From: Tessaracoccus sp. SD287
Lineage (GTDB): Bacteria > Actinomycetota > Actinomycetes > Propionibacteriales > Propionibacteriaceae
Length of the DNA: 53,166 bases
Assembly: GCF_017355265.1 (NCBI RefSeq)
Contig: NZ_JADIJQ010000018.1
Coordinates: 1 to 53,166, forward strand
Direction of reading: 5' to 3'
Numbering within the stretch: the first letter of the stretch is position 1; the number at the start of each line of letters is the position of its first letter. Made by a program: the position numbers and the translations under genes. Below the pieces are notes generated by a model. It worked only from the letters and a program-made list of their open reading frames with translations. It made no database searches and was not told the origin of the DNA. Positions 28,637 through 53,166 of this stretch are shown piece after piece.

Positions 28637-29572
28637 TCAGTTGGGCAGGATCACCGTTCCGGCGTTCGCGGTGACAGCCTGGGTGATGTTGTCCAGTGCC
28701 GTGATCACCGACTTCGGCCCCCCGTTGCGGACGAAGCGCAGGGCGGCCTCGACCTTGGGACCCATCGAACCGCTCGCGAAATGGCCCTCGGCGGCGATCT
28801 GCTCCATCTCGGCCAACCGGACGGTGCCGACCTCACGCGCCTCGGGGGTTCCCCACCCGATGATGGCGTTCGGCACGTCGGTGGCGATCACCAGGACGTC
28901 GGCGCGCACCTGCTGGGCCAGCAGGGCGGCGGTCAGGTCCTTGTCGATGACTGCCTCGACGCCCTGCACCGTCCCGTCGTCCTTGCGGATGACCGGAATG
29001 CCGCCGCCACCGGAGGCGACCACCACGAAGTTGTTGGCCAGCAGCGACAGCATCGCCGGGGCATCCAGCACCTCCTGCGGGCTGGGGGAGGCCACCACGC
29101 GACGCCAGCCCTTCTCGCCGCGGTCCTCCCACTGCTGGCCGAAGCCGATCATGGCCTGGGCCTCGGCCTGGGGCAGGTAGCGTCCGACGGGCTTGGTGGG
29201 GGTGGTGAAGGCGGGGTCGAGGCGGTCGACCAGGGTGCGTGAGACCAGCGCGGCGACGTGGCGGCTGATGCCGCGGCGGGCCAGCGACGCCTCCAGGGCG
29301 TTGATGATGGTGAAGCCGATGGTGCCCTGGGTCTGCGCGCCGCACCAGTCCAGCGGCACCGGCGGCACCACCTTGGCGGCCAGTTCGTTCTTGACCAGCA
29401 GGTTGCCCACCTGGGGACCGTTGCCGTGGGTGATGACCACCTCGTGCTTGGCCTCGATCAAACCGGCAACCGATTCCATGGCGGCCTCGATGGCGCGGCG
29501 CTGGTCGTCGGGACGGGCGGCGCCGTCGGGTGCGGTCATGGCGTTGCCGCCCAGTGCCAGCAGAACTCTCAT
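28637..29572 (-). CDS. Carbamate kinase
   Basis: Catalyses carbamoyl phosphate + ADP to carbamate + ATP in the catabolic direction; carbamate decays to CO2 and ammonia. The 311-residue protein has LLALGGNAM (4-12), ITHGNGPQVGNLL (47-59), ASGGGGIPVI, the VIDKDL lysine motif, TDVPNAIIGWGTP, and FASGSMGPKVEAA. No arginine deiminase or ornithine carbamoyltransferase gene is nearby, so the carbamoyl phosphate source is not the arginine pathway here. An AllH-like carbamoyltransferase component at 52.4 kb is the obvious candidate partner. ATG 29572 has AGGAA upstream; the longer open frame is a shadow of the next gene. Confidence 0.96.
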   Translation of the reverse strand: MRVLLALGGNAMTAPDGAARPDDQRRAIEAAMESVAGLIEAKHEVVITHGNGPQVGNLLVKNELAAKVVPPVPLDWCGAQTQGTIGFTIINALEASLARRGISRHVAALVSRTLVDRLDPAFTTPTKPVGRYLPQAEAQAMIGFGQQWEDRGEKGWRRVVASPSPQEVLDAPAMLSLLANNFVVVASGGGGIPVIRKDDGTVQGVEAVIDKDLTAALLAQQVRADVLVIATDVPNAIIGWGTPEAREVGTVRLAEMEQIAAEGHFASGSMGPKVEAALRFVRNGGPKSVITALDNITQAVTANAGTVILPN

Positions 29573-29600
29573 GTCAGTTCCTTTCAGGACCTGTCGCGAA

Positions 29601-30479
29601 TCAGGTGGGTCGACGCCCGCGGATGGGGCGTTCGGGGGTGGCCGTGGCGGCCAGGTACTGCTGCCACGAGGTGGGACGGCGTCCCAGCAGCATGGCCAGC
29701 ACGTGCGCAGAGCCCACGAAACCGTGGGCGTCGTAGTAGGCGAACATCGCCAGCAGTTCCGAGGTGGCGGCCAGGTCGTCGGTGATGGCCGCAGCGGTGC
29801 GGGTGGCGGTGACCGGGAAGCCGAGCACCTCGCCGGCCTGGCCGGCCATGGTGTGGGCGTCGAGTTCCTCGGGGCCGGCCAGTTCGTAGGTGGCGTGCAC
29901 GTGGTCGCGGTCCAGCAGCACCGTGGCGCTGGCCTCGGCCACGTCGCGCAGGTCGACGTTGCTGAACGTGCGATCCAGCGAGTAGGGGACGGTGAGGTGC
30001 CCGTCGAGCACCGGCCCCAGCAGGTTCTGGAAGTAGGCGGCCGGCTGCAGGATCGTCCAGGCCAGACCACTGGTGCGCAGCAGGTGCTCGGCCTGGGCCT
30101 TGCGCAGGTGGTGCGGCATGGACGGGACGTAGGGGTGCATCACCGAGTGGAGGACGACCCGGTCCACCCCCGCCCGACGGGCCGCGGCGATGGTGCGGGC
30201 CAGCATTGGCACCTCGTCGACGCTGAGGTTCGGGGCGCTGTGGTGGATGGCGCGGACCCCGGCGCATGCCTCGTCCAGCCCGGCACCGGTGGCCGGGTCG
30301 ACCTGGACGAGTTCGACCCCGGCCGGTGCCCGTCCCCGGTGGCGTCCCCCGGCGGGGCGCCGGGTGGTGCCCCGCACCGGGACCCCCCGGGCCAGCAGGG
30401 CATGCGCCACCGCGGCGCCGGTCTTGCCGGTCACGCCCAGCACGAGTACTGGTGCGCCGGACGGTGCGGTGGTGGTCAC
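29601..30479 (-). CDS. NAD(P)-binding NmrA/atypical-SDR protein
   Basis: A ~292-residue Rossmann-fold protein of the NmrA/NAD(P)H-binding family. The N-terminal dinucleotide motif is VLVLGVTGKTGAAVAHALLA (about 12-31), followed by VRGTTRRP. Later pieces are VDRVVLHSVMHPYVPSM, AEHLLRTSGLAWTILQPAAY and VDLRDVAEASATVLL. No classical YxxxK catalytic pair is seen, so it may act as a redox sensor or isomerase rather than a dehydrogenase. GTG 30479 is chosen because CAGGAGGA lies just upstream. It sits between hyuB and the carbamate kinase gene on the same strand, with 35- and 28-base gaps. Function in the pathway is unknown. Confidence 0.85.
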   Translation of the reverse strand: MTTTAPSGAPVLVLGVTGKTGAAVAHALLARGVPVRGTTRRPAGGRHRGRAPAGVELVQVDPATGAGLDEACAGVRAIHHSAPNLSVDEVPMLARTIAAARRAGVDRVVLHSVMHPYVPSMPHHLRKAQAEHLLRTSGLAWTILQPAAYFQNLLGPVLDGHLTVPYSLDRTFSNVDLRDVAEASATVLLDRDHVHATYELAGPEELDAHTMAGQAGEVLGFPVTATRTAAAITDDLAATSELLAMFAYYDAHGFVGSAHVLAMLLGRRPTSWQQYLAATATPERPIRGRRPT

Positions 30480-30514
30480 ATGTCCTCCTGGCCCTGACGG
30501 GTGGTCCCGGTGGT

Positions 30515-32545
30515 TCACAGCCAGTCGACGACCGGCGCCTGACGGCCCTCGGGGTCAAGAGCAGCGAAGCCGGGGCCACGGTCGAAGAAGGGCTCCTCGC
30601 CGGTGCGGGCGTCGCGCAGTTCGCGTCGCAGCTGCTCGGTGGCAGCCTCGTCGACCTGCGGGTCGTCCTTGTCGCCGGAGGCAACCACGCCGTAGTCGGC
30701 GCGGGCACCCTCGAAGGAGACCTTGCCCCAGAGCAGGTCACGACGCACCTCGTCGATCGGACGATCCAGCGGGTCGCCCCAGCCGCCGCCACCGGTGGTG
30801 CGGATGCGGATGACCTCGCCGGCCTTGACCGGTTCGGTGTCGACCAGCGCCTCCAGTTCGCGCTCGTTGGGGCCGCCCGGGTCGATGGTCACCTCGAAGG
30901 GACGTCCCGCCTTGCCGCCCTTGACGCCCCAGCAGGCCAGGATCGAGCGGTCGGCGATGGACATGAAGTGGGCGTCCTTGAGCATGCGGATGTGCTTCTC
31001 GTAGCCCAGACCGCCGCGGTAGCGACCGGCGCCGCCGGAGTCGACGGCCAGACCCAGCCGCTCGACCAGGAACGGGAAGCGGCTCTCGGTGAACTCGGTG
31101 GGCAGGTTGCGGGAGTCGGGCACCACGTGGATGGTGTCCTCGCCATCGGAGTAGTAGCGACCACCCGAACCGCCGCCGAGGACCTCACGCATCAGGTAGT
31201 CGTTGCCGTCGCGGTCCTTGCCGTAGACACCGGTGTAGCGGATGGTCTCCTGGTCGGCGGGCATCTGCCCGTCCACGGCCTTGGCCACGACGCCGGCCAG
31301 CACGCCGAGCAGGCGCAGGATGACGAAGGTGCGGGCGTTGGTCGGGCCTGGGTAGATCGGGGTGAGCAGGGTGCCCTTCTCGGGGAAGCGCATCTCGATG
31401 AGCGGCACGATGCCCTCGTTGACGTCGAGCTCGCCCATCCGCTCGGGGGTGTCGGCCAGGTTGCGCAGGATCGGTGCCAGCCACTTCTTGAGGAAGTTGC
31501 CGCCGACGTAGTCACCGCAGTGGTTGATGGGGCCGGCGGCCTGGGCGGCGGTGCCGGTGAAGTCGATGATCAGGCGCGGGCCGTCGCCGGGGCCACCGGT
31601 GGCGGTCTTGGTGAGCGTGATCCGCTGGGTGTGCAGGGTGGGCTCGGCCACGCCGTCGTGTTCGGCGTAGTCCTCCCAGACGTACTGGCCGTCGGGGATC
31701 TTGGAGAGGATCTCGCGGCGGTAGATCTCGGTGGTGTTGTCCAGGATGGTGTCGAAGGCCGTCTCGACGGTCTCGCGGCCGTAGCGGGCGAACAGGTCGC
31801 TGAGCCGGCTGGCACCCATCAGGCAGGCCGAGCACTCGGCGTCCAGGTCGGCTGCCAACGAGTCGGGCATCCGCGAGTTGCGGGTCATGATGCGCAGCGC
31901 CGACTTGTTCGGCACCCCCGCGTCCCACAGCTTGATGGGCGGCACCGACAGGCCCTCCTCGTGGACGCTGGTCGCTCCCGAGGGCATCGACCCGGGACGG
32001 GCACCGCCAATGTCGTCGTGGTGGCCAAATGCCTGGACGAAGCAGACGACCTTGCCCTCGTGGAAGACGGGCACGGTGACGCACAGGTCGGGCAGGTGGC
32101 CGATACCGCCCTCGGACTCGTAGACGTCGTTGTGGAAGAAGACGTCGCCCTCGCGCATGGTCTCCAGCGGGAAGTCACGCACGATCGGGTGGACCAGGGC
32201 GGAGTAGGAGCGTCCGGTCAGCTTGCGCAGCTGGCGGTCGTGGATACCGGCCCGGAAGTCGTGGGCGTCGCGGATCATGGGAGAGCGCGAGGTGCGGGCG
32301 ATGGCGGTCTCGACCTCCATCTCGACGCTGGCCAGGGTGCCCTGGACGATCTCGACGACGATCGGGTCGACGGGGGTGCCCTCAGGCTGCAGGCGGTTGC
32401 CGTGCTCGTAGCTGGTGGGCAGGCCGGCCGGGTTGATGGGTTCGGCGGCGATGTAGGCCTCCAGGGCCTCGCCGGTGAGCGGCGCCAGGCCCAGCATGGA
32501 GCCGGAGTCGGTGGGGCGGGTGGTGCTCGCGGTGTCGGTGGTCAC
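30515..32545 (-). CDS. hyuB: Hydantoinase B/oxoprolinase-family subunit HyuB
   Basis: The 676-residue beta subunit of an ATP-dependent amidohydrolase/carboxylase of the 5-oxoprolinase, N-methylhydantoinase and acetone-carboxylase superfamily. Recognisable parts: DPIVVEIVQGTLASVEMEVE, TSRSPMIRDAHDFRAGI, GDVFFHNDVYESEGGIGHL, CFVQAFGHHDDIGGARPGSM, and the Gly-rich C-terminal TTGGGGWGDPLDRP. The GTG start overlaps the hyuA stop by four bases (GTGA), as expected for an alpha/beta complex made in equal amounts. Substrate is not readable; cyclic ureides or lactams are the family's usual targets. Confidence 0.9.
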   Translation of the reverse strand: MTTDTASTTRPTDSGSMLGLAPLTGEALEAYIAAEPINPAGLPTSYEHGNRLQPEGTPVDPIVVEIVQGTLASVEMEVETAIARTSRSPMIRDAHDFRAGIHDRQLRKLTGRSYSALVHPIVRDFPLETMREGDVFFHNDVYESEGGIGHLPDLCVTVPVFHEGKVVCFVQAFGHHDDIGGARPGSMPSGATSVHEEGLSVPPIKLWDAGVPNKSALRIMTRNSRMPDSLAADLDAECSACLMGASRLSDLFARYGRETVETAFDTILDNTTEIYRREILSKIPDGQYVWEDYAEHDGVAEPTLHTQRITLTKTATGGPGDGPRLIIDFTGTAAQAAGPINHCGDYVGGNFLKKWLAPILRNLADTPERMGELDVNEGIVPLIEMRFPEKGTLLTPIYPGPTNARTFVILRLLGVLAGVVAKAVDGQMPADQETIRYTGVYGKDRDGNDYLMREVLGGGSGGRYYSDGEDTIHVVPDSRNLPTEFTESRFPFLVERLGLAVDSGGAGRYRGGLGYEKHIRMLKDAHFMSIADRSILACWGVKGGKAGRPFEVTIDPGGPNERELEALVDTEPVKAGEVIRIRTTGGGGWGDPLDRPIDEVRRDLLWGKVSFEGARADYGVVASGDKDDPQVDEAATEQLRRELRDARTGEEPFFDRGPGFAALDPEGRQAPVVDWL

Positions 32546-34653
32546 TGTGCGGCCTCCTTGGTGATGATGAGGTTGGCGTGCTCGTCGACGCGGACGGTGA
32601 AGCCGGGGTGGACGGGGATCGTGGAGCCGAACTCCTCGATGATGGCCGGGCCGGTGAGGGTGTCACCGGCGAGCAGGTCCTCGCGCCAGTAGACACCGGC
32701 GGTGACCCGACCCTGGTCGGCGTCGAAGCAGACCTCGCGGCTGCTCTTGCGGGCGCGGGTCTCGACGTCGGCGGCACCGGCGCCGGACTCGATGGTGACG
32801 ACCTCGGGGCGCTTGATCGGGCCGATGCCCGAGACCCGCAGGTTGACCCATTCGACCTGCTGACTGTCGTCGCCGCGGAAGTCGTAGTTGTACAGCGCGC
32901 GGTGGGCGTCGTGGAAGGCGTCGGTGACCTGGTCGGCCCACTCGCGGGTGACCTCGCCGGCCGGGGCGTTGACCCGCACCTCAAAGGCCTGCCCGAAGTA
33001 GCGCAGGTCGACGCTGCGGGTGAAGACGTGGTCCGCTTCGGCGAAGCCTTCGTTGGTGAGCGCCTCGGTGGCGCGTTCGTGCAGATCAGCCAGCGTCTTC
33101 TCGACGGCGTCGAGGTCGAGGGTGAGGTCCTTGGCGACCTGGGTCTGCACGTAGTCGTTCTTGACGTCGACGGTGAGCAGGCCGAAGGCCGAGACGTTGC
33201 CGGGGTTCTGCGGGACGACCACCCCGGCCAGGTCGAGGATGTCGACCAGGCTGCAGGCCAGCAGTGAGCCGGAGCCGCCGAAGGTGGCCAGCATGAAGTC
33301 GCGGACGTCCAGGCCACGCTTGACCGAGATCTGGCGCAGGGCGTTGGCCTGGTTCCAGGCCGAGATCTCGAGGATGCCGGTGGCGGCCTTCTCGGGGCTC
33401 AGGCCCAGACGTTCGGCCAGCTCGGTGATGCCGCGTTCGGCGGCGTCGGTGTACAGCGGGATCTCGCCGCCCAGCAGGTGCGGTGGGATGCGGCCCAGGA
33501 AGACGTGGGCGTCGGTGATGGTCGGCTCGGTGCCGCCCTTGCCGTAGCACAGCGGGCCCGGGTCGGCGCCGGCCGAGTGGGGACCGACCTTGAGCTGACC
33601 CTCGGGGGTGGTCCAGGCGATGGAACCGCCGCCGGCACCCACGGTGACCACGTCGATCATCGGGATCTTGGACGGGTAGGCACCCACCGAACCCTCGGTG
33701 GTCAGCGCCGGTTCGCCGTCGATGACGACGGTCACGTCGGTGGAGGTGCCGCCGCCGTCGCAGGTGAGCACCTTGTCGAAGCCGGCGCGTCGGGCGATCA
33801 GGCCGGCGCCCAGGGCGCCCGCGGCCGGGCCGGACAGCACGGTGGTGATGGGCTGGTTGACGACCTCGTTGGCCGACAGCACGCCGCCGTTGGACTTCAT
33901 GATGTAGAAGGGGATGTGGCCGCCACCGGTGGCGCCGGTGAAGTCGTCCAGCCGGTCGTGGATGTTGGTGACGTAGCGCGAGACCTTGGGCTTGACGGCG
34001 GCGTCGACCAGGGTGGTCATCGAGCGCTCGTACTCGCGGTACTCGCGCAGCACCTCGCTGCTGATGGAGACGACCGCGTCGGGGTGCTCCTCGGTGAGGA
34101 TCTCGCGCATCCGCAGCTCGTGGGCCGGGTTGGCGTAGGCGTGCAGGAAGTTCACGCCCAGGGTGTTGATGCCCTTGTCACGGAACCAGCGGGCGGTGGC
34201 GCGGGCGCCGTCCTCGTCGAAGGGGCGCACCTCGTTGCCCTCGAAGTCCATCCGGCCCTCGACGGTCTTGACCAGGTCGGCCGGCACGATGCGCTCGGGC
34301 TTGACCCAGAAGTAGGAGTTGCCGTACCCGTCGGGAACGGCCTGGCGGGCGATCTCGAGGACGAACTCGTAGCCGGTGGTGGTGATGAAGCCGAGGACGT
34401 CGAGCTTGCCCTCGAGCAGCTGGTTGGTGGCCACGGTGGTGCCGTGGGAGACGGCGGTGATGTCGCTGCCGGTCGCTCCGAGGATGTCGAGCACCTTCTG
34501 CACCCCGTTGATGAACCCGTCGGCCGGGTTCGAGGGGGTCGAGGGAGTCTTGGTGGTGGTCAGGGTGCCGGCATCCTCGTCGAAGGCCACCACGTCGGTG
34601 AAGGTGCCTCCGGTGTCGATGCCGATGCGAATGCGTCGCGCTTCCTGCGTCAT
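32542..34653 (-). CDS. hyuA: Hydantoinase A/oxoprolinase-family subunit HyuA
   Basis: The 703-residue ATP-binding subunit paired with HyuB. The N-terminal Hydant_A_N fold begins IRIGIDTGGTFTDVVAFD (residues 8-25), with ITAVSHGTTVATNQLLEGK near 65-83. The ASKHA core has VLTCDGGGTSTDVTVVIDG, MIDVVTVGAGGGSIAW and ATFGGSGSLLA. The C-terminal domain carries TGPAIIEEFGSTIPV. The enzyme would couple ATP hydrolysis to opening or carboxylating a ring amide. A GGAAGGA Shine-Dalgarno precedes ATG 34653. Upstream are repeated GCCAAAGGGTGGG-like boxes that could be operators. Confidence 0.92.
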   Translation of the reverse strand: MTQEARRIRIGIDTGGTFTDVVAFDEDAGTLTTTKTPSTPSNPADGFINGVQKVLDILGATGSDITAVSHGTTVATNQLLEGKLDVLGFITTTGYEFVLEIARQAVPDGYGNSYFWVKPERIVPADLVKTVEGRMDFEGNEVRPFDEDGARATARWFRDKGINTLGVNFLHAYANPAHELRMREILTEEHPDAVVSISSEVLREYREYERSMTTLVDAAVKPKVSRYVTNIHDRLDDFTGATGGGHIPFYIMKSNGGVLSANEVVNQPITTVLSGPAAGALGAGLIARRAGFDKVLTCDGGGTSTDVTVVIDGEPALTTEGSVGAYPSKIPMIDVVTVGAGGGSIAWTTPEGQLKVGPHSAGADPGPLCYGKGGTEPTITDAHVFLGRIPPHLLGGEIPLYTDAAERGITELAERLGLSPEKAATGILEISAWNQANALRQISVKRGLDVRDFMLATFGGSGSLLACSLVDILDLAGVVVPQNPGNVSAFGLLTVDVKNDYVQTQVAKDLTLDLDAVEKTLADLHERATEALTNEGFAEADHVFTRSVDLRYFGQAFEVRVNAPAGEVTREWADQVTDAFHDAHRALYNYDFRGDDSQQVEWVNLRVSGIGPIKRPEVVTIESGAGAADVETRARKSSREVCFDADQGRVTAGVYWREDLLAGDTLTGPAIIEEFGSTIPVHPGFTVRVDEHANLIITKEAAQ

Positions 34654-43240: not shown

Positions 43241-43331
43241 CGCTGACCTCATTTTGGGTGTGGTGGGACACGGGGACGTCCCGGTGGACGTCCTCGGTGG
43301 ATGGGTGGGCGGGGCGTGGTGGCCCCGCGGC

Positions 43332-45023: not shown

Positions 45024-47438
45024 TCAGGGTTGCGGGTGGGGATGCCGCAGGGACGGCCACTGGCCGGCCTCGTGCTTGCGGCGCAACTCCCACAGGTCGG
45101 CCGGTGAGATCGGCATCTTGGTGATCGGGAACCCCTCGGCGTCCTCGATGGCGCTGGCGATGACGGCCGACGCGGGAATCGTCCCCGCCTCACCGGCCCC
45201 CTTGATGCCCAGCGGGTTCAGCGTGGTCGGGGTCTCCAGGTGGTCGGTCTCGATGTGGGGCACCTCGGTGGCGAACGGCATCAGGAAGTCCATGAACGAG
45301 GCGTTCAGCAACTGGCCGGAGTCGTCGTAGGCCATCTTCTCGTAGAGCGCCCCGCCGATGCCCTGGGCGACGCCGCCATGCACCTGGCCCTCGACGATCA
45401 TCGGGTTGATCATCTTGCCGCAGTCATGGATGACGCAGTAGCGCAGCACCGTGATGTCGGCGGTCTCGGGGTCGGTCTCGACGATGGCGGCATGCATGCC
45501 GTTGGCGAAGGTCGCGCCCTTGGGGGAGTAGAAGTCCTTGCCCTCCAGCCCGGGTTCCTCGCCGGGCTGGATCGGCGGCTTGGACAGGTCGACCGAGGTC
45601 GAGAACTGGGTGGCGGCCTTGGCGGTCTCGTCAAAGGCGTAGCGCAGCGGGTTCGACAGCACCGAGACCATGCCCAGCGACATCTTGTTCTCGGGGTCGC
45701 CCTTGATCCGGATGAACCCGTCGACGATCTCCAGGTCCTCGGGGTCGGCCTCCAGCGCGTTGCCGGCGATCTTGAGCGCCTTCTGCTTGACCTGGGTGGC
45801 GGCCAGGTGCACCGCCGAGCCGCTGGTCACCGCGGCGCGGGACGCGAAGGTGCCCACCGAGTATCCGAAGCGGCGGGTGTCGCCGGTGGTGATGAAGACG
45901 TCCTCCAACGGCACCCCGAGTTCGTCGGCGACGATCTGCGCGAACGAGGTGGCGTGGCCCTGGCCCTGGGTGGTGACGCCGGTGGCCACGTTGACCCGGC
46001 CATTGGTCTCGACCTGGATGTGTCCGCCCTCGTAGGGCCCGATGCCGGTGCCCTCGACGTAGCAGCCGATGCCCAGCCCAACCTTGCGTCCCTCGGCGGC
46101 CGCCTGCTGGCGGTAGGCCTCGAAGTCGTCCCAGCCGACCAGTTCCTTCAGCTTGCGCAGCGACGCGGGGAAGTCGCCGGAGTCGTAGACCGTGGGGCGG
46201 CCGTCCTGGAACATCAGGCCGACCTCCCAGGGCATCTGCTCGGGCTGGATGAAGTTGCGCGAGCGCACCTCGGCGCGGTCCAGTCCGAGGTAGTCGGCGA
46301 TGGCGTCCATGGTGCGTTCCATGATGAACACGCCCTGGGGACGTCCGGCGCCGCGGTAGGGGGTGACGATGACGGTGTTGGTGTACAGCGAGTAGTACTC
46401 GACGCGGTAGTTCGGCAGCCGGTAGGGGCCGACCAACTGCACCGAGGTGTTCAGCGGCACGATCACGCCGTAGGGCATGTAGGCGCCGTGGTCGTGCCAG
46501 AAGGTGACGTCGAGCCCGCGAATGACGCCGTCGTCGTCGAAACCGACGCGGGCGCGCTGCAGCTGGCCGCGTTCGTGGGCCGAGGAGATGAAGTGCTCGC
46601 GGCGGTCCTCGGTCCACTTGACCTGGGCCTGCAGGCGCTTGGCGGCTGCGGCGACGCAGACTTCCTCGGGCCAGGGGTGGTTGATCTTGACGCCGAAGCC
46701 GCCGCCGACGTCGGGGACCACGACGTGCAGCTTGGCCAGCGGCATCTCGAGTTTGGCTGCCAGGGCGGCCCGCAGGCCGGTCGAGGTCTGGGTGGAGGAG
46801 GCGACGCTCAGTTCACCGCTGGCCGCGTGCCAGGTCGCCTGGACCGCCTTGCCCTCCATCGGCATGCAGGCGCTGCGTTCGAAGTCGAAGTCGAGTTCCA
46901 GCATGTGCGGGGCATCCTCGATGGCCGCCGGCGCGTCACCCACGTTCTGCACGTAGTGGGCGCCGACGTTGCCGGGCGCCTCCTCGTGGACCAGGAGCTC
47001 CGCCTCGCGAGCGTTGGCGATGCCGACGACGGGGGGCTGCACGTCGTAGCTGACCGACACCTTCTGGGCCGCGTCCTCGGCAATGTAGCGGTTGGTGGCC
47101 ACCACCATCACGATGGCCTCGCCGACGTGGTTGACCTGGTCCTTGGCCAGGGCGTGGGCGGTGACCGGGTGCTGGATGCTGGGGTGGGGCAGCAGCATCG
47201 GCAGCGGTTCGCCGGCGGCCCCCTCCAGGTCCTCCCAGGTCCACACGGCGATGACCCCGTCGACCTCGACGGCGGCGTCCACGTCGATGTCCAGGATGCG
47301 GGCGTGGGCGTGGGGGGAGCGGACGAAGGCCGCCTCCAGGGCGGTGTGGCTGAGGTCATCGGTGTACTTGCCGTCGCCGCTGACCAGGCGGGGGTCCTCG
47401 CGGCGCTGAACAGCGGCGCCCATCATCTTGCCGCTCAT
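45024..47438 (-). CDS. Molybdenum hydroxylase large subunit (xanthine oxidase family)
   Basis: The 804-residue molybdopterin-cytosine-dinucleotide subunit of a three-subunit hydroxylase that inserts an oxygen from water into a heterocycle. Motifs: VVPDVGGGFGVKINHPW (240-256), the active-site loop TPYRGAGRP (359-367), TTQGQGHATSFAQ, and the catalytic glutamate at about E750 in GIKGAGEAGTIPASAV. The loop is RGAGR and lacks the AYxCSFR of true CO dehydrogenase (form I), so CO is not the substrate. Family alternatives are uracil/thymine, nicotinate or xanthine-type substrates; the cluster favours uracil. ATG 47438 overlaps the iron-sulfur gene stop (ATGA); an earlier open frame is shadow. Confidence 0.93.
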   Translation of the reverse strand: MSGKMMGAAVQRREDPRLVSGDGKYTDDLSHTALEAAFVRSPHAHARILDIDVDAAVEVDGVIAVWTWEDLEGAAGEPLPMLLPHPSIQHPVTAHALAKDQVNHVGEAIVMVVATNRYIAEDAAQKVSVSYDVQPPVVGIANAREAELLVHEEAPGNVGAHYVQNVGDAPAAIEDAPHMLELDFDFERSACMPMEGKAVQATWHAASGELSVASSTQTSTGLRAALAAKLEMPLAKLHVVVPDVGGGFGVKINHPWPEEVCVAAAAKRLQAQVKWTEDRREHFISSAHERGQLQRARVGFDDDGVIRGLDVTFWHDHGAYMPYGVIVPLNTSVQLVGPYRLPNYRVEYYSLYTNTVIVTPYRGAGRPQGVFIMERTMDAIADYLGLDRAEVRSRNFIQPEQMPWEVGLMFQDGRPTVYDSGDFPASLRKLKELVGWDDFEAYRQQAAAEGRKVGLGIGCYVEGTGIGPYEGGHIQVETNGRVNVATGVTTQGQGHATSFAQIVADELGVPLEDVFITTGDTRRFGYSVGTFASRAAVTSGSAVHLAATQVKQKALKIAGNALEADPEDLEIVDGFIRIKGDPENKMSLGMVSVLSNPLRYAFDETAKAATQFSTSVDLSKPPIQPGEEPGLEGKDFYSPKGATFANGMHAAIVETDPETADITVLRYCVIHDCGKMINPMIVEGQVHGGVAQGIGGALYEKMAYDDSGQLLNASFMDFLMPFATEVPHIETDHLETPTTLNPLGIKGAGEAGTIPASAVIASAIEDAEGFPITKMPISPADLWELRRKHEAGQWPSLRHPHPQP

Positions 47439-48010
47439 GCCTGCACCTGCCCGGGGGTCGTGGCCTGGGCGCGTTCCTGCTTGATCTCGGCGGCGCGGCA
47501 GACGCTCTTGACGATGTTCTGGTAGCCGGTGCAGCGGCACAGGTTGCCGGAGATGGCCTCGCGGGCCTCCTCGGGGGTGGGATCGGGGTTCTCGTCCAGG
47601 AAGGCGGTGATGGTGGTGATGAAACCGGGGGTGCAGAAGCCGCACTGCAGGCCGTGGCACTCGACGAACGCCTGCTGCACGGGGCCCAGGTCGTCGGGGC
47701 CATTGCCGCAGCCCTCGACGGTGGTCAGGTCCATGCCCTCGGCGCTGGCCGCGAAGATCAGGCAGGAACGAATGGGCTGGCCATCGGCGAGCACGGTGCA
47801 GGCGCCGCAGACGCCGTGCTCGCAGCCGACGTGGGTGCCGGTCAGGCCGACGTCATGGCGCAGGGCGTCCGACAGCAGTCGGCGGGCAGGCACCGTGATG
47901 ACGTGACGGTCGCCATTGACGGTCAGGGTGACCTGCTGCAGGCTCTCGGCCTCGGTGGCCTCGAAGGGAGCATTCTGGGTCGGGCTGTGACTGATCCGGC
48001 TCTGGGTCAT
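47435..48010 (-). CDS. Molybdenum hydroxylase [2Fe-2S] small subunit
   Basis: The 191-residue electron-transfer subunit. The N-terminal plant-type cluster uses C63, C68, C71 and C83 (VGCEHGVCGACTVL ... RSCLIF). The C-terminal four-helix domain cluster uses C123, C126, C158 and C160 (LQCGFCTPGF ... NLCRCTGYQNIV). All eight ligands are present. Residues 1-25 are an unusual non-conserved extension before the first strand (QQVTLTVNGD). ATG 48010 overlaps the FAD-subunit stop (ATGA), so the three subunits are translationally coupled in the order FAD, Fe-S, Mo. Confidence 0.95.
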   Translation of the reverse strand: MTQSRISHSPTQNAPFEATEAESLQQVTLTVNGDRHVITVPARRLLSDALRHDVGLTGTHVGCEHGVCGACTVLADGQPIRSCLIFAASAEGMDLTTVEGCGNGPDDLGPVQQAFVECHGLQCGFCTPGFITTITAFLDENPDPTPEEAREAISGNLCRCTGYQNIVKSVCRAAEIKQERAQATTPGQVQA

Positions 48011-48909
48011 CGCTGGGCCTCCTCGTTCTGGTGCTGGTTCTGGTCGGCGAGTTGGGTCACCAGACCGCTGAACACCCGACGGCACAGGATGCCGCTGAGG
48101 TGCCGGCGGTAGTCGGCGCTGGCGTGGATGTCGTCGACGGGCTCGACGTGGTCACGGGCGGCCTGCGCGACGGCGGCCAGGTCCTGGCTGGTGATCTCGC
48201 CGGGCCGACGGCCGGCGACCACGTCGGTCAGGTCGAGCACGTCGGGCACGTCGGTGACCGAGACGAAGGATGCCCTGGCGGCGACGATGCCGCCGGCCTC
48301 CTGGGTCACGGCGAGGGCGACCCCGGCCAGGGCGTAGTCGCCGCTGCGCCGGGCAAGTTCGTGGTAGCCGGTCAGGGTGCCGGCAGGGAAGCGGCGGAAG
48401 TCGACGCCCAGCACCAGTTCGTCGGCTCGCAGCACCGACTCCATGGGCCCGACGAAGAAGTCCTCGGCGGCAATCGTGCGGGCACCGCTGGCCGACAGGG
48501 TGCGCACCGAGCCGCCGGTCAGGGCCAGCACGGCCGGCATCTCACCGGAGGGGTCGGCGTGGGCGATGGAACCGACGGTGGTGCCGCGGTTCCGAATGGC
48601 GGGGTGGGCCACCCAGGCCAGGGCCTGCCGCAGCAGCGGCAGGGCCTGGTGGGCGGCGTCGTGGTGTTCGAGCTCCGAGTGGCGCACGATGGCGCCGACC
48701 CGCACCCGGTCGTCCAGCACCTCGATGGTGGCCAGGTCCTGGATGCGGTTGATGTCGACCAGGTGGGCTGGGGTGGCCAGCCGCATGTTGAGCACGGGGA
48801 CCAGGCTCTGGCCGCCGGCCAGGACCTTGACGTCCTCGAACTCGGCGAGCAGTGCGACGGCCTCGTCGATGGTGGTGGGGAGGTGCAGGGTGAACGGAGC
48901 TGGTTTCAC
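48007..48909 (-). CDS. Molybdenum hydroxylase FAD-binding medium subunit
   Basis: The 300-residue FAD subunit (CoxM/XdhB-like), which passes electrons to the external acceptor. FAD-binding signatures VLAGGQSLVPVLNMRLA (about 29-45) and NRGTTVGSIAHADPSGEMPA (about 107-126) are clear. The C-terminal CO_deh_flav_C-like domain follows (DYALAGVALAVT, and YRRHLSGILCRRVF near the end). GTG start 48909 without a strong Shine-Dalgarno. It begins the molybdoenzyme gene set, 57 bases after the permease gene stop. No MoCo-insertion chaperone (XdhC/CoxF/CoxDE type) is seen in the window. Confidence 0.94.
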   Translation of the reverse strand: MKPAPFTLHLPTTIDEAVALLAEFEDVKVLAGGQSLVPVLNMRLATPAHLVDINRIQDLATIEVLDDRVRVGAIVRHSELEHHDAAHQALPLLRQALAWVAHPAIRNRGTTVGSIAHADPSGEMPAVLALTGGSVRTLSASGARTIAAEDFFVGPMESVLRADELVLGVDFRRFPAGTLTGYHELARRSGDYALAGVALAVTQEAGGIVAARASFVSVTDVPDVLDLTDVVAGRRPGEITSQDLAAVAQAARDHVEPVDDIHASADYRRHLSGILCRRVFSGLVTQLADQNQHQNEEAQR

Positions 48910-48966
48910 AGTTTTCTGCCTTGGTCGGGCCGGCCGGGGCGGTGCCCCAGCCGGCTTGGGGCGGAG

Positions 48967-50457
48967 TTACTTGACGTGGTCGTCCTGCTCGGTGTGTCGG
49001 CGGGAGGCGACCCCGTGGTCGTCCTCGAGCCCGAGGTGTTCGAGGGACTGGTTGCCGGTGGGGTCGGCGATGATGGTGGCGCCGGCGTTCACCTCGCCGT
49101 CGGCACGATCACGCAGGTGCTGGGGTGCCACGAGTCGGGCCAGGTGGTACATGCCGACCGCGACGATGGTGCCCAGCGAGATGCCCGACAGGCTGAAGTC
49201 TTCGGTGAACGTCAGCGACACGTTGCCGATGGCGATGATGATGCCGGCGGCGACAGGAACCAGGTTGAGCGGGTTGGCGAAGTCGACCTTGTTCTCCTTC
49301 CAGATCTTGGCGCCGAGCAGGCCGATCATGCCGTACAGGACGACCGTGATGCCGCCCAGCACGCCACCGGGGGTCGCCGAGATGACGGCGCCGAACTTGG
49401 GCGAGAAGCCGAACAGGATGGCCACCAGGGCTGCCACCGTGTACGCCGCGGTGGAGTAGACCCGGGTGGAGGCCATCACGCCGATGTTCTCGGCGTAGGT
49501 GGTGGTCGGCGAGCCGCCGACGAGGGTGGCCACGGCCGAACCGACACCGTCGGCGGCGACCGCGGCGCCCATCTTGTCGTCCAGGTTGACGCCGGTCATC
49601 TCGGCCACGGCCTTGACGTGGCCGACGTTCTCGGCGACCAGCGCGATCACGGCCGGCAGCACCAGCAGGGTGAAGTTGAACGAGAACTCGGGCAGGTGCC
49701 AGCCGACGATGCCGGCGGCATTGTCGGTGGCCGGCGGCAGGCCGAACCAGTCGGCGGCCATGACACCGCTCCAGTCGACGCGCCAGTGCGTGTCGACCAC
49801 GCCGGTGCCGGCGTTGTAGGAGGTGATCTGGCCGGTGGTCAGGTCGAGCACCCACGACAGCAGGTAGCCGAACAGCAGGCCGATGAAGATCGAGATGCGG
49901 CCCAGGAAGCCGCGCAGGCCGACGCTGAGCATGATCACGACGAACATGACCACGAAGCCGACCCACTGGTCCTGCGGCCAGTACACCGAGGCGACCACGG
50001 GGGCCAAGTTGAAGCCGATCAGCATGACCACGGCGCCGGTGACCACGGGCGGCAGCACCCTGGTCAGCACGGCGGCACCCACGAAGTGGATGAAGACGCC
50101 GACCAGGATCAGGACGATCGCGGAGACGAAGATGGAGCCGGTGACCTGCTGCGGGGTGCCGCCGGCGGCATAGATGCCGACCACACCACCGACGAAGGCG
50201 GCCGAGGTGCCGAGGTAGGAGGGCACCTTCCCCTTGACGATGAGCAGGAACAGGATGGTGGCGACACCGCTCATCATGATGGCGAGCTGCGGGTTCAGCC
50301 CCATGATGATCGGGAAGACGAAGGTGGCCCCGAACATGGCCACGACGTGCTGTGCGCCCAGCCCGATCGTGCGGCCCCAGGTCAAGCGCTCGTGGGGGGC
50401 GACGACGTCGTCCGGCCCCAGCGTCTTGCCATCCCCGTGCAGCTTCCAAATTGCCAT
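48967..50457 (-). CDS. Uracil-type NCS2 permease (UraA/RutG-like)
   Basis: A 496-residue nucleobase/H+ symporter with about 14 membrane segments. The substrate-site residues match the uracil clade: ENVGH at 276-280 (cf. E241 and H245 of E. coli UraA) and TTTYAENIGVMASTRVYST at 318-336 (cf. E290). Xanthine/urate carriers of the same family carry a Q-N-x-G type motif instead. This is the best single clue to the pathway substrate. The C-terminal ~60 residues are a hydrophilic extension. AAGGAGA Shine-Dalgarno before ATG 50457, and a good promoter upstream. Confidence 0.92.
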   Translation of the reverse strand: MAIWKLHGDGKTLGPDDVVAPHERLTWGRTIGLGAQHVVAMFGATFVFPIIMGLNPQLAIMMSGVATILFLLIVKGKVPSYLGTSAAFVGGVVGIYAAGGTPQQVTGSIFVSAIVLILVGVFIHFVGAAVLTRVLPPVVTGAVVMLIGFNLAPVVASVYWPQDQWVGFVVMFVVIMLSVGLRGFLGRISIFIGLLFGYLLSWVLDLTTGQITSYNAGTGVVDTHWRVDWSGVMAADWFGLPPATDNAAGIVGWHLPEFSFNFTLLVLPAVIALVAENVGHVKAVAEMTGVNLDDKMGAAVAADGVGSAVATLVGGSPTTTYAENIGVMASTRVYSTAAYTVAALVAILFGFSPKFGAVISATPGGVLGGITVVLYGMIGLLGAKIWKENKVDFANPLNLVPVAAGIIIAIGNVSLTFTEDFSLSGISLGTIVAVGMYHLARLVAPQHLRDRADGEVNAGATIIADPTGNQSLEHLGLEDDHGVASRRHTEQDDHVK

Positions 50458-50571: not shown

Positions 50572-50600
50572 TGTCTACATGTGACAAATGCCACTTTCAA
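50572..50600 (-). promoter_or_regulatory. Promoter of the permease-molybdoenzyme operon
   Basis: On the minus strand: TTGAAA (50600-50595), a 17-base spacer, TAGACA (50577-50572). The leader to ATG 50457 is about 105 bases. The region between and around these boxes contains an imperfect palindrome, TGTCTACATGTGACA (50572-50586), which could be the PucR site. Confidence 0.65.
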
Positions 50601-50670
50601 CTCGCTGTGACTACGTCAAACACTGCCCGACCTTGGGCTGACTACGGTGTTTCAGTCATGTGACAGGTTG

Positions 50671-52362
50671 TTACAGTCCGCGCATCTGGATGACGTGCAG
50701 GGCCAGGGCCAGACTGAACCGTCGGTGGGAGTCGGTGGTGAAAGGGCCCAGGATCTGCTCGAGCTTGGTGATGCGGTAGCGCAGGGTGTTGTAGTGGAAG
50801 TGCAGCGCACGGGAGGTCTCGGCCACGTTCATGTTGTGTTCCAGCAGCACCGACAGGGTCTGGCGCAAATCCTCGGCGTCGGGCAGGTCGGTGCTCGCCA
50901 GCGGCCCGAGCGTCTCCAGGGCGAAGTTGCGCAGTTCGTCCGGGTCGACCTGGGAGAGCAGTCGGAAGACGCCGAGCGACCCGAACGGGGTGACCGAACC
51001 GTTGCCGTGCAGCCGCCGCCCGACGACCACCGACTCGGTGGCCTCGGCGTAGGCCCGGGGCAGGTCCCCGATGGTGGTGATCGGACGGCTGATGCCGGTG
51101 GTGAAGGACCGTCGACCGCCGCCGCCGTCGCCGCGCACGCTGCGGGCGAAGCGGCCCACCGTGCGCTCCAGGGACTCGGTGGGGGTGTCGGCGGCGATGC
51201 CGATCACCGCCACCACCTCCTGGGCATAGCCGGCGACCGGCGCCTCCGGGTCGGCCTCGTGCACCGCCTGCGACCAGGCCCGCGAGAAACGTTCCTGCAG
51301 GGAGCGTTCCTCCATGGCGTCCAGTGGGGTGGCGGACTGGTCCACGGTGGCGACCACCACGACGACCGGCCGATCCAGGTGCCAGCCCAGGGAATGGGCG
51401 TGACCCACCACCCGTTCCGGGGGGCCGGCGCGACCCACCAGGGCATCGCGCAGGAAGTCGGCGCGGTACTTGTTCTCCACGGCGGCCACCGCCTGCTGCT
51501 TGGTCAGCACCAGCGCTGCCGCGGCGGCGGCCCACTCCACCATCGGCACGTGGGTGGGCAGCAGGGTGTCATGGACCACCAGCAGCCGGCCCTCGTGGCG
51601 TCCCCGCACCAGCACCGGCACCAGCAGTCGCTGGAAACTGGGCTGGTCGTTGACGATGATGCCCGTCGGCTCGTCCTCGACCCGCAGCCGTCCGGTGCGG
51701 TCAAAGGCGGGCAGGCCGAGCACCGTGTCCAGGTCGACGCCGTCGGCGACCGCCGAGGCCAGCACCCGGCCGTCCATGGTGGTGACCACGGCTGCCGAGG
51801 CCAGGGCGGTGACCAGACCCGCGCACACCGTCGACAGGTCCCCGCCGCTGATGACGATGTCGACCAGGTCACCGACGACCTGCTCGTTGCGGGCCAGGTC
51901 GCCGGCGCGACGGTTCAGCACCCGCGACAGCACCTGGTTGAGGATCTCGTCGAACCCGATGCCGTCCGGCAGCCCGATCAGGGGGAAGTCGAGTTCGTCG
52001 GCGCGGCGCAGCGCCTCGGCGGGCAGTTCGTCCAGGTAGCGGTTGAGCTTGATGCCGAGTGCCGCCAGGCCGCGGGCATGCAGGTCGGCGACGAAGCTGC
52101 CCAGGTCGCCGGTCTGGCGCAGCGGGTAGCCGGTGGTCAGCAGCAACTGGTCGGGATTGGTCCACGGCAGGACGTCGGGGACCTCCATCACGTTGACCCG
52201 GCTCACCAGTCGGGCGAGCCCGTCGGCACCGGCCAGCACCGTCGCCCCGGCCAGGGCGGGCAGCTCGAGCACCTCGCTGACGCTGAGCCCGCGGGCCTCG
52301 GTGGGGGAGAGCTTTGGCATCACTTGACGGACATCGACGGTGGTGTTGTCATGATTGACCAT
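50671..52362 (-). CDS. PucR-family transcriptional regulator
   Basis: A 563-residue regulator with the PucR architecture. The N-terminal purine-catabolism regulatory domain spans about residues 25-150 (LSVSEVLELPALAGATVLAG, NVMEVPDVLPWTNPDQLLLT, ELDFPLIGLP). A GGDEF-like/CdaR middle domain follows. The C-terminal HTH_30 helix-turn-helix sits at about 515-550 (LLEHNMNVAETSRALHFHYN, then TLRYRITKLEQILG). PucR-type proteins activate purine or pyrimidine catabolism genes in response to a pathway intermediate. The position between the permease operon and the AllH-like gene makes it the likely regulator of both. Start ATG 52362 has a TACCCT box 6 bases upstream; GTG/ATG alternatives are downstream. 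Confidence 0.93.
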   Translation of the reverse strand: MVNHDNTTVDVRQVMPKLSPTEARGLSVSEVLELPALAGATVLAGADGLARLVSRVNVMEVPDVLPWTNPDQLLLTTGYPLRQTGDLGSFVADLHARGLAALGIKLNRYLDELPAEALRRADELDFPLIGLPDGIGFDEILNQVLSRVLNRRAGDLARNEQVVGDLVDIVISGGDLSTVCAGLVTALASAAVVTTMDGRVLASAVADGVDLDTVLGLPAFDRTGRLRVEDEPTGIIVNDQPSFQRLLVPVLVRGRHEGRLLVVHDTLLPTHVPMVEWAAAAAALVLTKQQAVAAVENKYRADFLRDALVGRAGPPERVVGHAHSLGWHLDRPVVVVVATVDQSATPLDAMEERSLQERFSRAWSQAVHEADPEAPVAGYAQEVVAVIGIAADTPTESLERTVGRFARSVRGDGGGGRRSFTTGISRPITTIGDLPRAYAEATESVVVGRRLHGNGSVTPFGSLGVFRLLSQVDPDELRNFALETLGPLASTDLPDAEDLRQTLSVLLEHNMNVAETSRALHFHYNTLRYRITKLEQILGPFTTDSHRRFSLALALHVIQMRGL

Positions 52363-52368
52363 GAACGC

Positions 52369-52391
52369 AGGGTAGCCCGAGCACCTAGCCT
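52369..52391. promoter_or_regulatory. Divergent leaderless promoters of pucR and allH-like gene
   Basis: Minus strand: TACCCT (52374-52369) then 6 bases to ATG 52362. Plus strand: TAGCCT (52386-52391) then 6 bases to ATG 52398. The two -10 boxes are 11 bases apart, so the promoters overlap and should compete or be co-regulated. Confidence 0.55.
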
Positions 52392-52397
52392 ACGGAA

Positions 52398-53166
52398 ATG
52401 ACCTCCGCCGCTCCCACCGTCCTGCGCCTGCAGGGCTCCGTGGCCACCGAGAGCGCCGCCGACGTGGCCCGTGGTGGGGCCTGCCGGGTGCTGGCGGTCT
52501 TCGAGAACGCGGCCTACCTGCTGCTGCCCCACAGCCATGAGGCGGTGGTGGCGGTGTTGCGGCGCGAGGCCCTGCAACTGCCGAACGCGATCCGGTTGCT
52601 GGGAACCACCGGCGACCTGCGCGGCCTGCTGCAGGTGGGCGACCAGGGCCGGGTCTCGACCGATGAGTTCGGCGTCACCCAGTTGCGCGTCGGCGAGGCC
52701 CGGATCGCCCTGATCGGTCACCACAAGCCCACGCAGGTGCGGCTGCAGGCTGCCTGGTCGCTCGCCACCGCCGACCTGGACGCCCTGGGCGCGGCCCCGT
52801 CGCTGCGCTCCCGGGCGCACGGTCTGGCCGCCGGGCTGGACGTCGGGGACCCCAGCCCGCTCCAGGGGCTGATCGGGTGGGGGCAGGGACTCACCCCCAC
52901 CGGTGATGACCTGGCCTGCGGGGTGCTGCTCGCCATGGTCGCCACCGAACGCCTCGAACCCGGCCACGCCGTCGACCTGCTCGGCAGCCACGGTCTGCGC
53001 ACCACCAGTTTGTCGGCCCGGCTGCTGCGCTGCGCCGCCCACGGCATGGGCGTCCCCGAGGTGATTGCCCTGGTCGATGCCCTGCTGGCACCCGGACGAC
53101 GGCCCAGCGCCGCCCAGATCCAGGCGGTCCACGCCATCGGGCACAGCTCCGGACGAGACCTCTGCG
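52398..53166 (+). CDS. allH: DUF2877/AllH-like protein, carbamoyltransferase component (partial)
   Basis: The frame is open from ATG 52398 to the window edge (256 codons) without a stop, so the 3' end is missing. The DUF2877 signatures are clear: LIGWGQGLTPTGDDLACGV (about residues 156-174), TTSLSARLLRCAAHG, and the C-terminal AVHAIGHSSGRDL. DUF2877 is the family of AllH (YlbF), one of three proteins (AllF/FdrA, AllG/DUF1116, AllH) of anaerobic oxamate carbamoyltransferase, which works with carbamate kinase. A carbamate kinase gene lies at 28.6 kb. AllF- and AllG-like genes would be expected immediately downstream. The symbol is given by family, not proven function. Confidence 0.88.
   Translation, partial: MTSAAPTVLRLQGSVATESAADVARGGACRVLAVFENAAYLLLPHSHEAVVAVLRREALQLPNAIRLLGTTGDLRGLLQVGDQGRVSTDEFGVTQLRVGEARIALIGHHKPTQVRLQAAWSLATADLDALGAAPSLRSRAHGLAAGLDVGDPSPLQGLIGWGQGLTPTGDDLACGVLLAMVATERLEPGHAVDLLGSHGLRTTSLSARLLRCAAHGMGVPEVIALVDALLAPGRRPSAAQIQAVHAIGHSSGRDLC

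What the first reader, a model, noticed from the sequence alone, without database searches (positions are those of the whole stretch)
28637..53166. Candidate energy-conserving oxidative uracil pathway: molybdoenzyme + barbiturase + AllFGH-type carbamoyltransferase + carbamate kinase
The cluster combines a uracil-clade NCS2 permease, a three-subunit Mo hydroxylase, a barbiturase/cyanurate-hydrolase enzyme, a nitrilase-type amidase, carbamate kinase, a PucR regulator and an AllH-like carbamoyltransferase component. Known oxidative pyrimidine degradation goes uracil to barbiturate to 3-oxo-3-ureidopropanoate to malonate plus urea. That acyclic ureide is the one-carbon homologue of oxalurate, the AllFGH product/substrate. 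Phosphorolysis would give carbamoyl phosphate plus malonamate, and carbamate kinase would then make one ATP. This would be a route I do not know to be described: oxidative pyrimidine breakdown that conserves the carbamoyl bond energy instead of releasing urea. The gene families are seen; the joined pathway is inference.
Basis: partly seen in the sequence, partly recalled or inferred. Interest (0 to 1): 0.9.

Follow-up and report, generated by a model that had tools for sequence, protein, structure and literature searches.

The report
ATP-saving uracil breakdown cluster
Many soil actinobacteria carry linked genes for a predicted uracil-breakdown route in which a fragment of the ring would be captured as carbamoyl phosphate and likely used to make ATP, instead of being released as urea as in the known pathway.

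Summary
The window is a whole contig ending inside allH; the genome's only allG, with fdrA (allF) beside it, lies at the end of another contig, next to coxD, coxE and xdhC. In 7 of 7 relatives mapped over 20-55 kb, fdrA, allG, the Mo hydroxylase, carbamate kinase and barbiturase form one cluster. The ring-opening enzyme matches solved barbiturase at 658 bits (cyanuric acid hydrolase 301) with the full barbiturase residue signature. Carbamate kinase lies directly upstream of barbiturase in 73 of 80 related loci (in the window it is 7.8 kb away). AllG is in 46 of 49 barbiturase isolates; the three misses are rhodococci, which also lack carbamate kinase and carry urease. Barbiturase-linked AllG forms a supported clade. 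The host has no urease or AllD match, and no allantoinase over the cut-off. Best reading: an energy-conserving variant in which AllFGH phosphorolyses ureidomalonate to malonamate and carbamoyl phosphate, carbamate kinase makes ATP, and malonate goes to acetyl-CoA. Gene content, linkage and co-loss are shown; the reactions are inferred. Held papers do not describe it, but the 2012 family survey could not be read. New variant of a known pathway.

The parts
28637..29572 (-). carbamate kinase (311 aa)
   Evidence: Pfam AA_kinase; NF009007 carbamate kinase 312.7 bits over cut-off 266, TIGR00746 344.9 just under cut-off 358.25; only full-length match in the genome
30515..32545 (-). HyuB, hydantoinase B/oxoprolinase family; step unknown
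   Evidence: PF02538 451.5 bits; in 55 of 80 related loci
32542..34653 (-). HyuA, hydantoinase A/oxoprolinase family; step unknown
   Evidence: PF01968 298.4 bits; in 47 of 80 related loci
35770..36969 (-). Fic/DOC family protein between barbiturase and hyuA; probably not part of the pathway
   Evidence: PF02661; no Fic match in the 80 related loci
37390..38523 (-). barbiturase
   Evidence: PF09663 465.2 bits; 658 bits to solved barbiturase 5hwe, 301 to the next, a cyanuric acid hydrolase; N193 H323 K327 V347 S348
38632..39555 (-). ABC importer permease
   Evidence: PF02653
39548..40600 (-). ABC importer permease
   Evidence: PF02653; start
40597..42213 (-). ABC importer ATPase with two ABC domains
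   Evidence: PF00005, two stretches
42227..43252 (-). BMP/PnrA-like substrate-binding protein, likely nucleoside or nucleobase uptake
   Evidence: PF02608
43332..44258 (-). nitrilase-type amidase, likely malonamate amidase
   Evidence: PF00795 152.8 bits; nearest solved protein nitrilase homolog 2, 2w1v, 93.8 bits
44255..44974 (-). CoxG
   Evidence: PF06240
45024..47438 (-). Mo hydroxylase large subunit (804 aa), likely uracil dehydrogenase
   Evidence: MoCoBD_1, MoCoBD_2, Ald_Xan_dh_C; loop PYRGAGRPQG, no CSFR; start
47435..48010 (-). Mo hydroxylase 2Fe-2S subunit
   Evidence: Fer2, Fer2_2; start
48007..48909 (-). Mo hydroxylase FAD subunit
   Evidence: FAD_binding_5, CO_deh_flav_C
48967..50457 (-). 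NCS2 permease, likely uracil
   Evidence: PF00860 240.2 bits; best NCBIfam model RutG, under its cut-off
50671..52362 (-). PucR-type regulator
   Evidence: PucR, GGDEF_2, HTH_30
52398..53166 (+). allH, cut off by the contig end; fdrA and allG lie at the end of contig C65, outside the window
   Evidence: PF11392 69.6 bits over cut-off 25, profile 1-101 of 109; only AllH in the genome

Best explanation
The cluster encodes a Mo hydroxylase, a close homologue of barbiturase, AllFGH-type carbamoyltransferase subunits and carbamate kinase, and likely degrades uracil by oxidation to barbiturate and ureidomalonate, which AllFGH would cleave with phosphate into malonamate and carbamoyl phosphate so that carbamate kinase would make one ATP. 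Steps: (1) uptake by the NCS2 permease and perhaps the BMP/ABC importer (inferred). (2) Uracil to barbiturate by the Mo hydroxylase, probably helped by CoxD, CoxE, CoxG and XdhC (inferred from linkage to barbiturase, also in Rhodococcus). (3) Barbiturate to 3-oxo-3-ureidopropanoate by barbiturase (strong by homology and signature residues, not assayed). (4) Phosphorolysis by AllFGH to malonamate and carbamoyl phosphate (inferred: the oxalurate reaction with one more carbon). (5) Carbamoyl phosphate and ADP to ATP, NH3 and CO2 by carbamate kinase (family function; role inferred). (6) Malonamate to malonate and NH3 by the nitrilase, or by an amidase in relatives (inferred). (7) Malonate to malonyl-CoA and acetyl-CoA by a family III CoA-transferase and a carboxyltransferase, on contig C34 here and beside barbiturase in some relatives (inferred). 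HyuAB has no assigned step; HyuA also lies near barbiturase in R. erythropolis, which lacks AllG, so HyuAB is unlikely to be the carbamoyl-cleaving step.
For: allF, allG and allH are all in the genome, once each for allG and allH. One cluster holds AllG, FdrA, Mo large subunit, carbamate kinase and barbiturase in 7 of 7 relatives; AllH just upstream of fdrA in 10 of 10 scanned. Carbamate kinase directly upstream of barbiturase, same strand, 14-147 nt, in 73 of 80 loci. Phylum survey: 22 of 27 barbiturase-family genomes have AllG against 27 of 369 without barbiturase (Fisher 4e-18); the 22 carry barbiturases at least 61% identical to the window's, the 5 misses 35-41%. AllG in 46 of 49 isolates; full-length carbamate kinase in those 46 and the host, in none of the 3 rhodococci. 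Urease in 3 of 3 rhodococci, 8 of the other 47. AllD over cut-off in 0 of 50. Barbiturase-linked AllG rows (52) form one clade, support 97/90. Barbiturase 658 versus 301 bits and signature residues.
Against: No assay exists. In the window carbamate kinase is not next to barbiturase but 7.8 kb away, behind a Fic gene and hyuAB. The C10-C65 join is not shown and no overlap was found. Carbamate kinase passes the TIGR00746 cut-off in only 11 of 50 genomes, the host not among them, though NF009007 is passed in the host. 8 AllG carriers also have urease; 23 of 50 genomes have an allantoinase over cut-off, so oxalurate cannot be excluded there. In two isolates AllG lies about 2.1 Mb from barbiturase. 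HyuAB is unexplained, and AllFGH with HyuAB and a Mo hydroxylase also occurs without barbiturase. Rhodococci are three related genomes, not three independent losses.
Confidence: 0.75

Rival explanations
1. The known urea-releasing pathway: ureidomalonate is hydrolysed to malonate and urea by the nitrilase or an amidase, and AllFGH with carbamate kinase serves another substrate.
For: An amidase lies within 10 kb of barbiturase in 20 of 80 loci, 17 of them outside Rhodococcus. 8 of 47 AllG carriers have urease.
Against: AllG and carbamate kinase are kept together in 47 of 47 and lost together in 3 of 3 (host included). 39 of 47 AllG carriers, host included, show no urease alpha match. Outside Rhodococcus the amidase mostly sits between coxG and hyuA and is 30-43% identical to the Rhodococcus one, which directly follows barbiturase.
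Confidence: 0.1
2. AllFGH and carbamate kinase act on oxalurate from purine or allantoin breakdown, as in E. coli, and are only neighbours of a pyrimidine cluster.
For: E. coli has allF-allG-allH with the carbamate kinase gene ybcF, beside allC and allD. 23 of 50 genomes have an allantoinase over cut-off. 117 AllG positions conserved in the barbiturase-linked rows are identical in E. coli.
Against: AllD over cut-off in 0 of 50, no match at all in the host. Host allantoinase match 210.6 bits, under the cut-off of 357.85. AllG sits in the barbiturase cluster and forms its own clade there. A different oxalurate source was not excluded.
Confidence: 0.08
3. The ring-opening enzyme acts on cyanuric acid or another cyclic imide, not barbiturate, and the cluster degrades that compound.
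For: NCBIfam's cyanuric acid amidohydrolase model passes its cut-off on this protein (460.3 versus 360). HyuAB suggests a second cyclic substrate.
Against: Solved barbiturase outscores solved cyanuric acid hydrolases 658 to 301. The five specificity residues are the barbiturase set here and in 79 of 80 related loci (rule from PMC3758960).
Confidence: 0.04
4. The nitrilase removes the carbamoyl group of ureidomalonate by hydrolysis (malonamate, CO2 and NH3), so no ATP is made.
For: N-carbamoyl hydrolases are among the solved relatives of the nitrilase.
Against: It is found in only 6 of 80 loci while carbamate kinase is in 73; nearest solved relative is nitrilase homolog 2. It leaves AllFGH and carbamate kinase without a role.
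Confidence: 0.03

Closest known systems
Oxidative pyrimidine degradation with barbiturase and ureidomalonase (R. erythropolis)
   Same: Barbiturase of the same group with the same signature; Mo hydroxylase (61% identical large subunit), NCS2 permease, PucR, XdhC, CoxG, HyuA, CoA-transferase and carboxyltransferase near barbiturase in R. erythropolis NBRC 15567.
   Different: R. erythropolis lacks AllG and a full-length carbamate kinase, has urease, and has an amidase directly after barbiturase; the known route yields malonic acid and urea (PMC3758960, passage).
E. coli oxamate branch of allantoin degradation: AllFGH oxamic transcarbamylase and catabolic carbamate kinase (AllK/YbcF)
   Same: Same three subunits and carbamate kinase; own AllG 189 of 414 aligned residues identical to E. 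coli; phosphorolysis of an acyclic ureide to carbamoyl phosphate (PMC11326118, passages).
   Different: No AllD; linked to barbiturase and a Mo hydroxylase; barbiturase-linked AllG is a separate clade. The inferred substrate is one carbon longer.
allFGHK of ammonia oxidisers (PMC12625717, passages)
   Same: AllFGH and carbamate kinase beside a nucleoside ABC importer without upstream allantoin genes.
   Different: That paper assigns them to oxalurate and its text holds no word starting with 'barbitur'; the neighbours there are biuret and triuret genes.
Aerobic CO dehydrogenase (NCBIfam NF040766, group 5)
   Same: Large subunit scores 1446 bits on that model, cut-off 950.
   Different: Loop reads PYRGAGRPQG and no CSFR occurs in the protein; its neighbours are pyrimidine genes.

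Membership tests
AtzD/barbiturase family, Group VI (barbiturase) | Asn, His, Lys, Val, Ser/Ala at AtzD positions 195, 321, 325, 345, 346 | tested here: met
   N193, H323, K327, V347, S348; rule read in PMC3758960 section 12
AtzD/barbiturase family, Group VI (barbiturase) | Hydrolyses barbiturate, not cyanurate | not testable with these tools
   needs an assay
AllFGH oxamic transcarbamylase | Three subunits F, G and H | tested here: met
   AllH cut by the contig end, AllG, FdrA; NCBIfam FdrA model 398.8 under cut-off 433 and no NCBIfam family for AllG
AllFGH oxamic transcarbamylase | Carbamoyl transfer between oxamate and carbamoyl phosphate | not testable with these tools
   needs an assay
E. 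coli oxamate branch (allantoin) | Ureidoglycolate dehydrogenase AllD, which makes oxalurate | tested here: not met
   TIGR03175: no match in the host, 0 of 50 genomes over cut-off; E. coli control over cut-off
E. coli oxamate branch (allantoin) | Allantoinase | tested here: not met
   Host best 210.6 bits, cut-off 357.85; 23 of 50 genomes pass
Rhodococcus-type oxidative pyrimidine pathway | Uracil/thymine dehydrogenase | tested here: inconclusive
   Mo hydroxylase beside barbiturase in both; activity not testable
Rhodococcus-type oxidative pyrimidine pathway | Ureidomalonase releasing urea | tested here: inconclusive
   No amidase among the window proteins scanned; whole genome not searched for amidases; the enzyme's gene is not known to me
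Carbamate kinase | Curated family model over cut-off | tested here: met
   NF009007 312.7 over 266; TIGR00746 344.9 under 358.25
Form I aerobic CO dehydrogenase | Active-site loop AYxCSFR (motif recalled, from no call) | tested here: not met
   PYRGAGRPQG, no CSFR in the protein

The most novel reading that the evidence does not exclude
A widespread, undescribed pyrimidine pathway of Actinomycetota that phosphorolyses the pyrimidine-derived ureide: a dedicated AllFGH clade is a ureidomalonate carbamoyltransferase (malonamate plus carbamoyl phosphate), carbamate kinase recovers ATP, and the C3 remainder goes to acetyl-CoA, so uracil serves as nitrogen, carbon and energy source without urea or urease. 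Rhodococcus is the exception that uses an amidase instead.
Probability: 0.7. Interest if true: 0.87.

Novelty: new variant of a known kind. Interest (0 to 1): 0.8.

Why it matters
If true, the described oxidative route (uracil to malonate plus urea) is the exception among the barbiturase isolates examined here (3 of 49), and the others would recover ATP from the ring. It would give AllFGH a second substrate, explain why carbamate kinase adjoins barbiturase, and offer candidate genes for uracil/thymine dehydrogenase (the Mo hydroxylase) and ureidomalonase (the Rhodococcus amidase); I saw no paper naming those genes in the listings, but most subscription papers are not held. It also warns that the large subunit, which NCBIfam files as aerobic CO dehydrogenase group 5, lacks the form I loop, so such genomes should not be counted as CO oxidisers on that label alone.

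Tried and rejected
Cyanuric acid route: rejected on solved-structure scores and the five residues. Allantoin/oxalurate route: disfavoured for the host on AllD and allantoinase; in relatives with allantoinase it stays a weak rival. Joining C10 to C65 by sequence: no exact overlap of 11-200 bases; the inverted repeat at the C65 end has no match in the window. HyuAB as the carbamoyl-cleaving step: disfavoured, since HyuA also lies near barbiturase in R. erythropolis, which lacks AllG. Nitrilase and amidase as exclusive alternatives: never both in 80 loci, but not significant (6, 20, 0 both; p 0.33). Structure prediction was not used, as a fold would not settle the substrate.

Limits of the counts: tblastn hits under 35% identity or 80 bits were dropped (FAD and AllH excepted from the identity rule), and loci reach at most 10 kb each way, many less. 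One search kept the best 80 of 555 confirmed places, ranked by likeness to the window's barbiturase, so the sample leans to close relatives. The AllG tree holds the 30 best AllG loci of each of two searches; 22 lower-scoring places (one of them a second copy in barbiturase carrier G386) and 22 (second copies in G410, G411, G425 and G429 among them) are not in it.

Literature: nine searches of held open-licence papers. 'barbiturase' with 'carbamate kinase' gave 0 papers. Seen as passages: PMC12625717, PMC11326118, PMC3758960 (section 12 in full), PMC3961730, PMC7662398 (one passage). All others only as search listings. The 2012 AtzD/barbiturase survey (PMC3415516) is not held. The Soong papers were not read; that ureidomalonase was found in R. 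erythropolis is recalled and fits the passages.
Full report
What is there. The window is the whole of contig C10 of a 3.02 Mb genome (66 contigs, 90.67% complete). Its barbiturase is closest to Dermatophilaceae/Intrasporangiaceae records among the named genomes (89% to a Dermatophilaceae metagenome record, 85-86% to Knoellia aerolata, Janibacter and Terrabacter). On the minus strand the genes run pucR, NCS2 permease, FAD, Fe-S and Mo subunits of a molybdenum hydroxylase, coxG, nitrilase, a four-gene BMP/ABC importer, barbiturase, a Fic gene, hyuA, hyuB and carbamate kinase. allH points the other way and runs off the contig end.

The missing allF and allG. The genome has one AllG match and one AllH match. 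AllG and FdrA lie at the end of contig C65; reading inward from that end the order is fdrA, allG, a MoxR/CoxD-type ATPase, CoxE and XdhC. The best solved relative of this FdrA is E. coli FdrA (3dmy). CoxD, CoxE and XdhC are maturation partners of such molybdoenzymes (recalled), so this contig end fits the window. In relatives the frame just upstream of fdrA is AllH in 10 of 10 scanned, and in Terrabacter, Janibacter, Aeromicrobium, Brevibacterium, G062 and G085 it lies next to a divergent pucR as in the window. So C10 and C65 most likely adjoin; no exact overlap was found and they were not joined.

Is it more than chance? In 7 of 7 relatives mapped over 20-55 kb, AllG, FdrA, the Mo large subunit, carbamate kinase and barbiturase lie in one stretch. 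Of ten more distant clusters in the phylum, nine have AllG; all nine have FdrA beside it, eight show a Mo large subunit in the stretch taken (one, G304, at only 27% identity) and seven show carbamate kinase. The tenth, G181 without AllG, has barbiturase beside an amidase and a Mo hydroxylase. Around barbiturase in 80 named loci, carbamate kinase is found in 73, always directly upstream on the same strand, 14-147 nt away (gaps between tblastn ends); HyuB in 55, a family III CoA-transferase in 51, HyuA in 47, a short-chain dehydrogenase-like protein in 30, a carboxyltransferase in 23, an amidase in 20, CoxG in 18, the Mo large subunit in 16, the nitrilase in 6. The window itself differs: carbamate kinase is 7.8 kb from barbiturase. 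In 396 genomes of the phylum, 27 have a barbiturase-family gene, 49 have AllG, 22 both (Fisher 4e-18, or 2.7e-17 without the host; relatedness not corrected). In 16 of the 22 both are on one contig, 3.7 to 44 kb apart. The five carriers without AllG have enzymes 35-41% identical to the window's; the 22 with AllG at least 61%.

The natural control. Of 50 isolate genomes asked, 49 were held; AllG is in 46. The three without it are Rhodococcus sp. IEGM 1409, R. erythropolis NBRC 15567 and Rhodococcoides fascians NBRC 12155. A full-length carbamate kinase match (E 1e-93 or better) is in all 46 and in the host; the three rhodococci have only short matches near 1e-9. Only 11 of the 50 pass the TIGR00746 cut-off. 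Urease alpha is in 3 of 3 rhodococci and 8 of the other 47, not in the host (p 0.008, but the three rhodococci are related). PMC3758960 (passages) says the known pathway yields malonic acid and urea through barbiturase and ureidomalonase, and places R. erythropolis JCM3132 in the group of the characterised enzyme. PMC11326118 (passages) makes a parallel point: urease-negative enterobacteria have AllFGH and AllK while urease-positive Klebsiella has none. Of the 30 isolates whose AllG contig length was returned, 26 share the barbiturase contig (judged by equal contig length), 24 of them 9-41 kb apart and two about 2.1 Mb apart; 4 are on other contigs.

The enzymes. Barbiturase: 658 bits to solved barbiturase 5hwe against 301 or less for solved cyanuric acid hydrolases, and N, H, K, V, S at the five specificity positions, as in 79 of 80 related loci. 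NCBIfam's cyanuric acid model also passes its cut-off, so a database label alone would mislead. AllG: 189 of 414 aligned residues identical to E. coli AllG; 117 positions conserved in at least 96% of barbiturase-linked rows are the same in E. coli, and five are conserved there but differ in E. coli and from the commonest residue of the barbiturase-negative rows. In a 61-row tree the 52 barbiturase-linked rows form one clade (97/90); the eight rows from barbiturase-negative genomes and E. coli lie outside. E. coli is a long branch, and lower-scoring AllG copies were not included. Carbamate kinase: over the NF009007 cut-off, just under that of TIGR00746. Mo large subunit: PYRGAGRPQG loop, no CSFR, 61% identical to the one near barbiturase in R. 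erythropolis. Nitrilase: nearest solved protein is nitrilase homolog 2 at a modest 93.8 bits; its substrate is inferred from position. CoA-transferase and carboxyltransferase: a pair at the start of contig C34 of the host, 60% and 54% identical to the pair near barbiturase in Aeromicrobium.

How it would work. Uracil to barbiturate; barbiturate to 3-oxo-3-ureidopropanoate; AllFGH phosphorolysis to malonamate and carbamoyl phosphate; carbamate kinase to ATP; amidase to malonate; CoA transfer and decarboxylation to acetyl-CoA. Gene content, linkage and co-loss are shown; each reaction is inferred from family and position.

What stays open. HyuA lies near barbiturase with and without AllG, so HyuAB probably serves another step or ring (5-methylbarbiturate from thymine is my guess). 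Three barbiturase-negative genomes (G032, G135, G157) carry FdrA and AllG, HyuAB (HyuB 69-73% identical) and a Mo hydroxylase 50-51% identical, which suggests a sister pathway with HyuAB as ring opener; no carbamate kinase was seen in those stretches. Eight urease-positive AllG carriers, 23 genomes with allantoinase and two with AllG far from barbiturase show that the association is strong but not absolute.

Novelty. None of the nine literature searches gave a paper that joins barbiturase with AllFGH or carbamate kinase (listings and the passages named). PMC12625717 reports allFGHK in nitrifiers and assigns them to oxalurate. The 2012 family survey was not held, so a remark there cannot be excluded.

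Noticed in passing
L119:11248-12723, also L113 and L131: An amidase-signature protein (PF01425) directly follows barbiturase in three rhodococci that lack AllG and carbamate kinase: a candidate for the ureidomalonase gene. Amidases also lie beside the divergent barbiturase-family genes of G181, G192 and G297, which lack AllG.
   Followed up: partly
L204, L205, L208 (G157, G032, G135): FdrA-AllG with HyuAB and a Mo hydroxylase but no barbiturase in the genome: possibly a sister route in which HyuAB opens the ring.
   Followed up: partly
window 45024-47438: The large subunit scores 1446 bits on NCBIfam 'CODH_aero_grp5' but has a PYRGAGRPQG loop and no CSFR; the CO dehydrogenase name is probably misleading.
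   Followed up: partly
L215:415-3107 (G000:C34): Family III CoA-transferase and fused carboxyltransferase at the start of a contig, matching the pair near barbiturase in relatives; likely malonate to acetyl-CoA.
   Followed up: yes
L003:19961-20000 (end of G000:C65): The last 40 bases of contig C65 are a perfect inverted repeat just upstream of fdrA; no match in the window.
   Followed up: partly
window 35770-36969: A Fic/DOC protein sits between barbiturase and hyuA; it has no match in the 80 related loci.
   Followed up: no
window 669-4857: Phosphate propanoyltransferase, flavoprotein, cobalamin adenosyltransferase/HbpS-like and aldehyde dehydrogenase genes in a row, like a microcompartment-type operon cut by the contig start (the microcompartment reading is recalled).
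   Followed up: no
L062, L063 (G361, G038): Barbiturase-negative genomes with carbamate kinase directly beside allG, as in E. coli; their substrate was not looked into.
   Followed up: no
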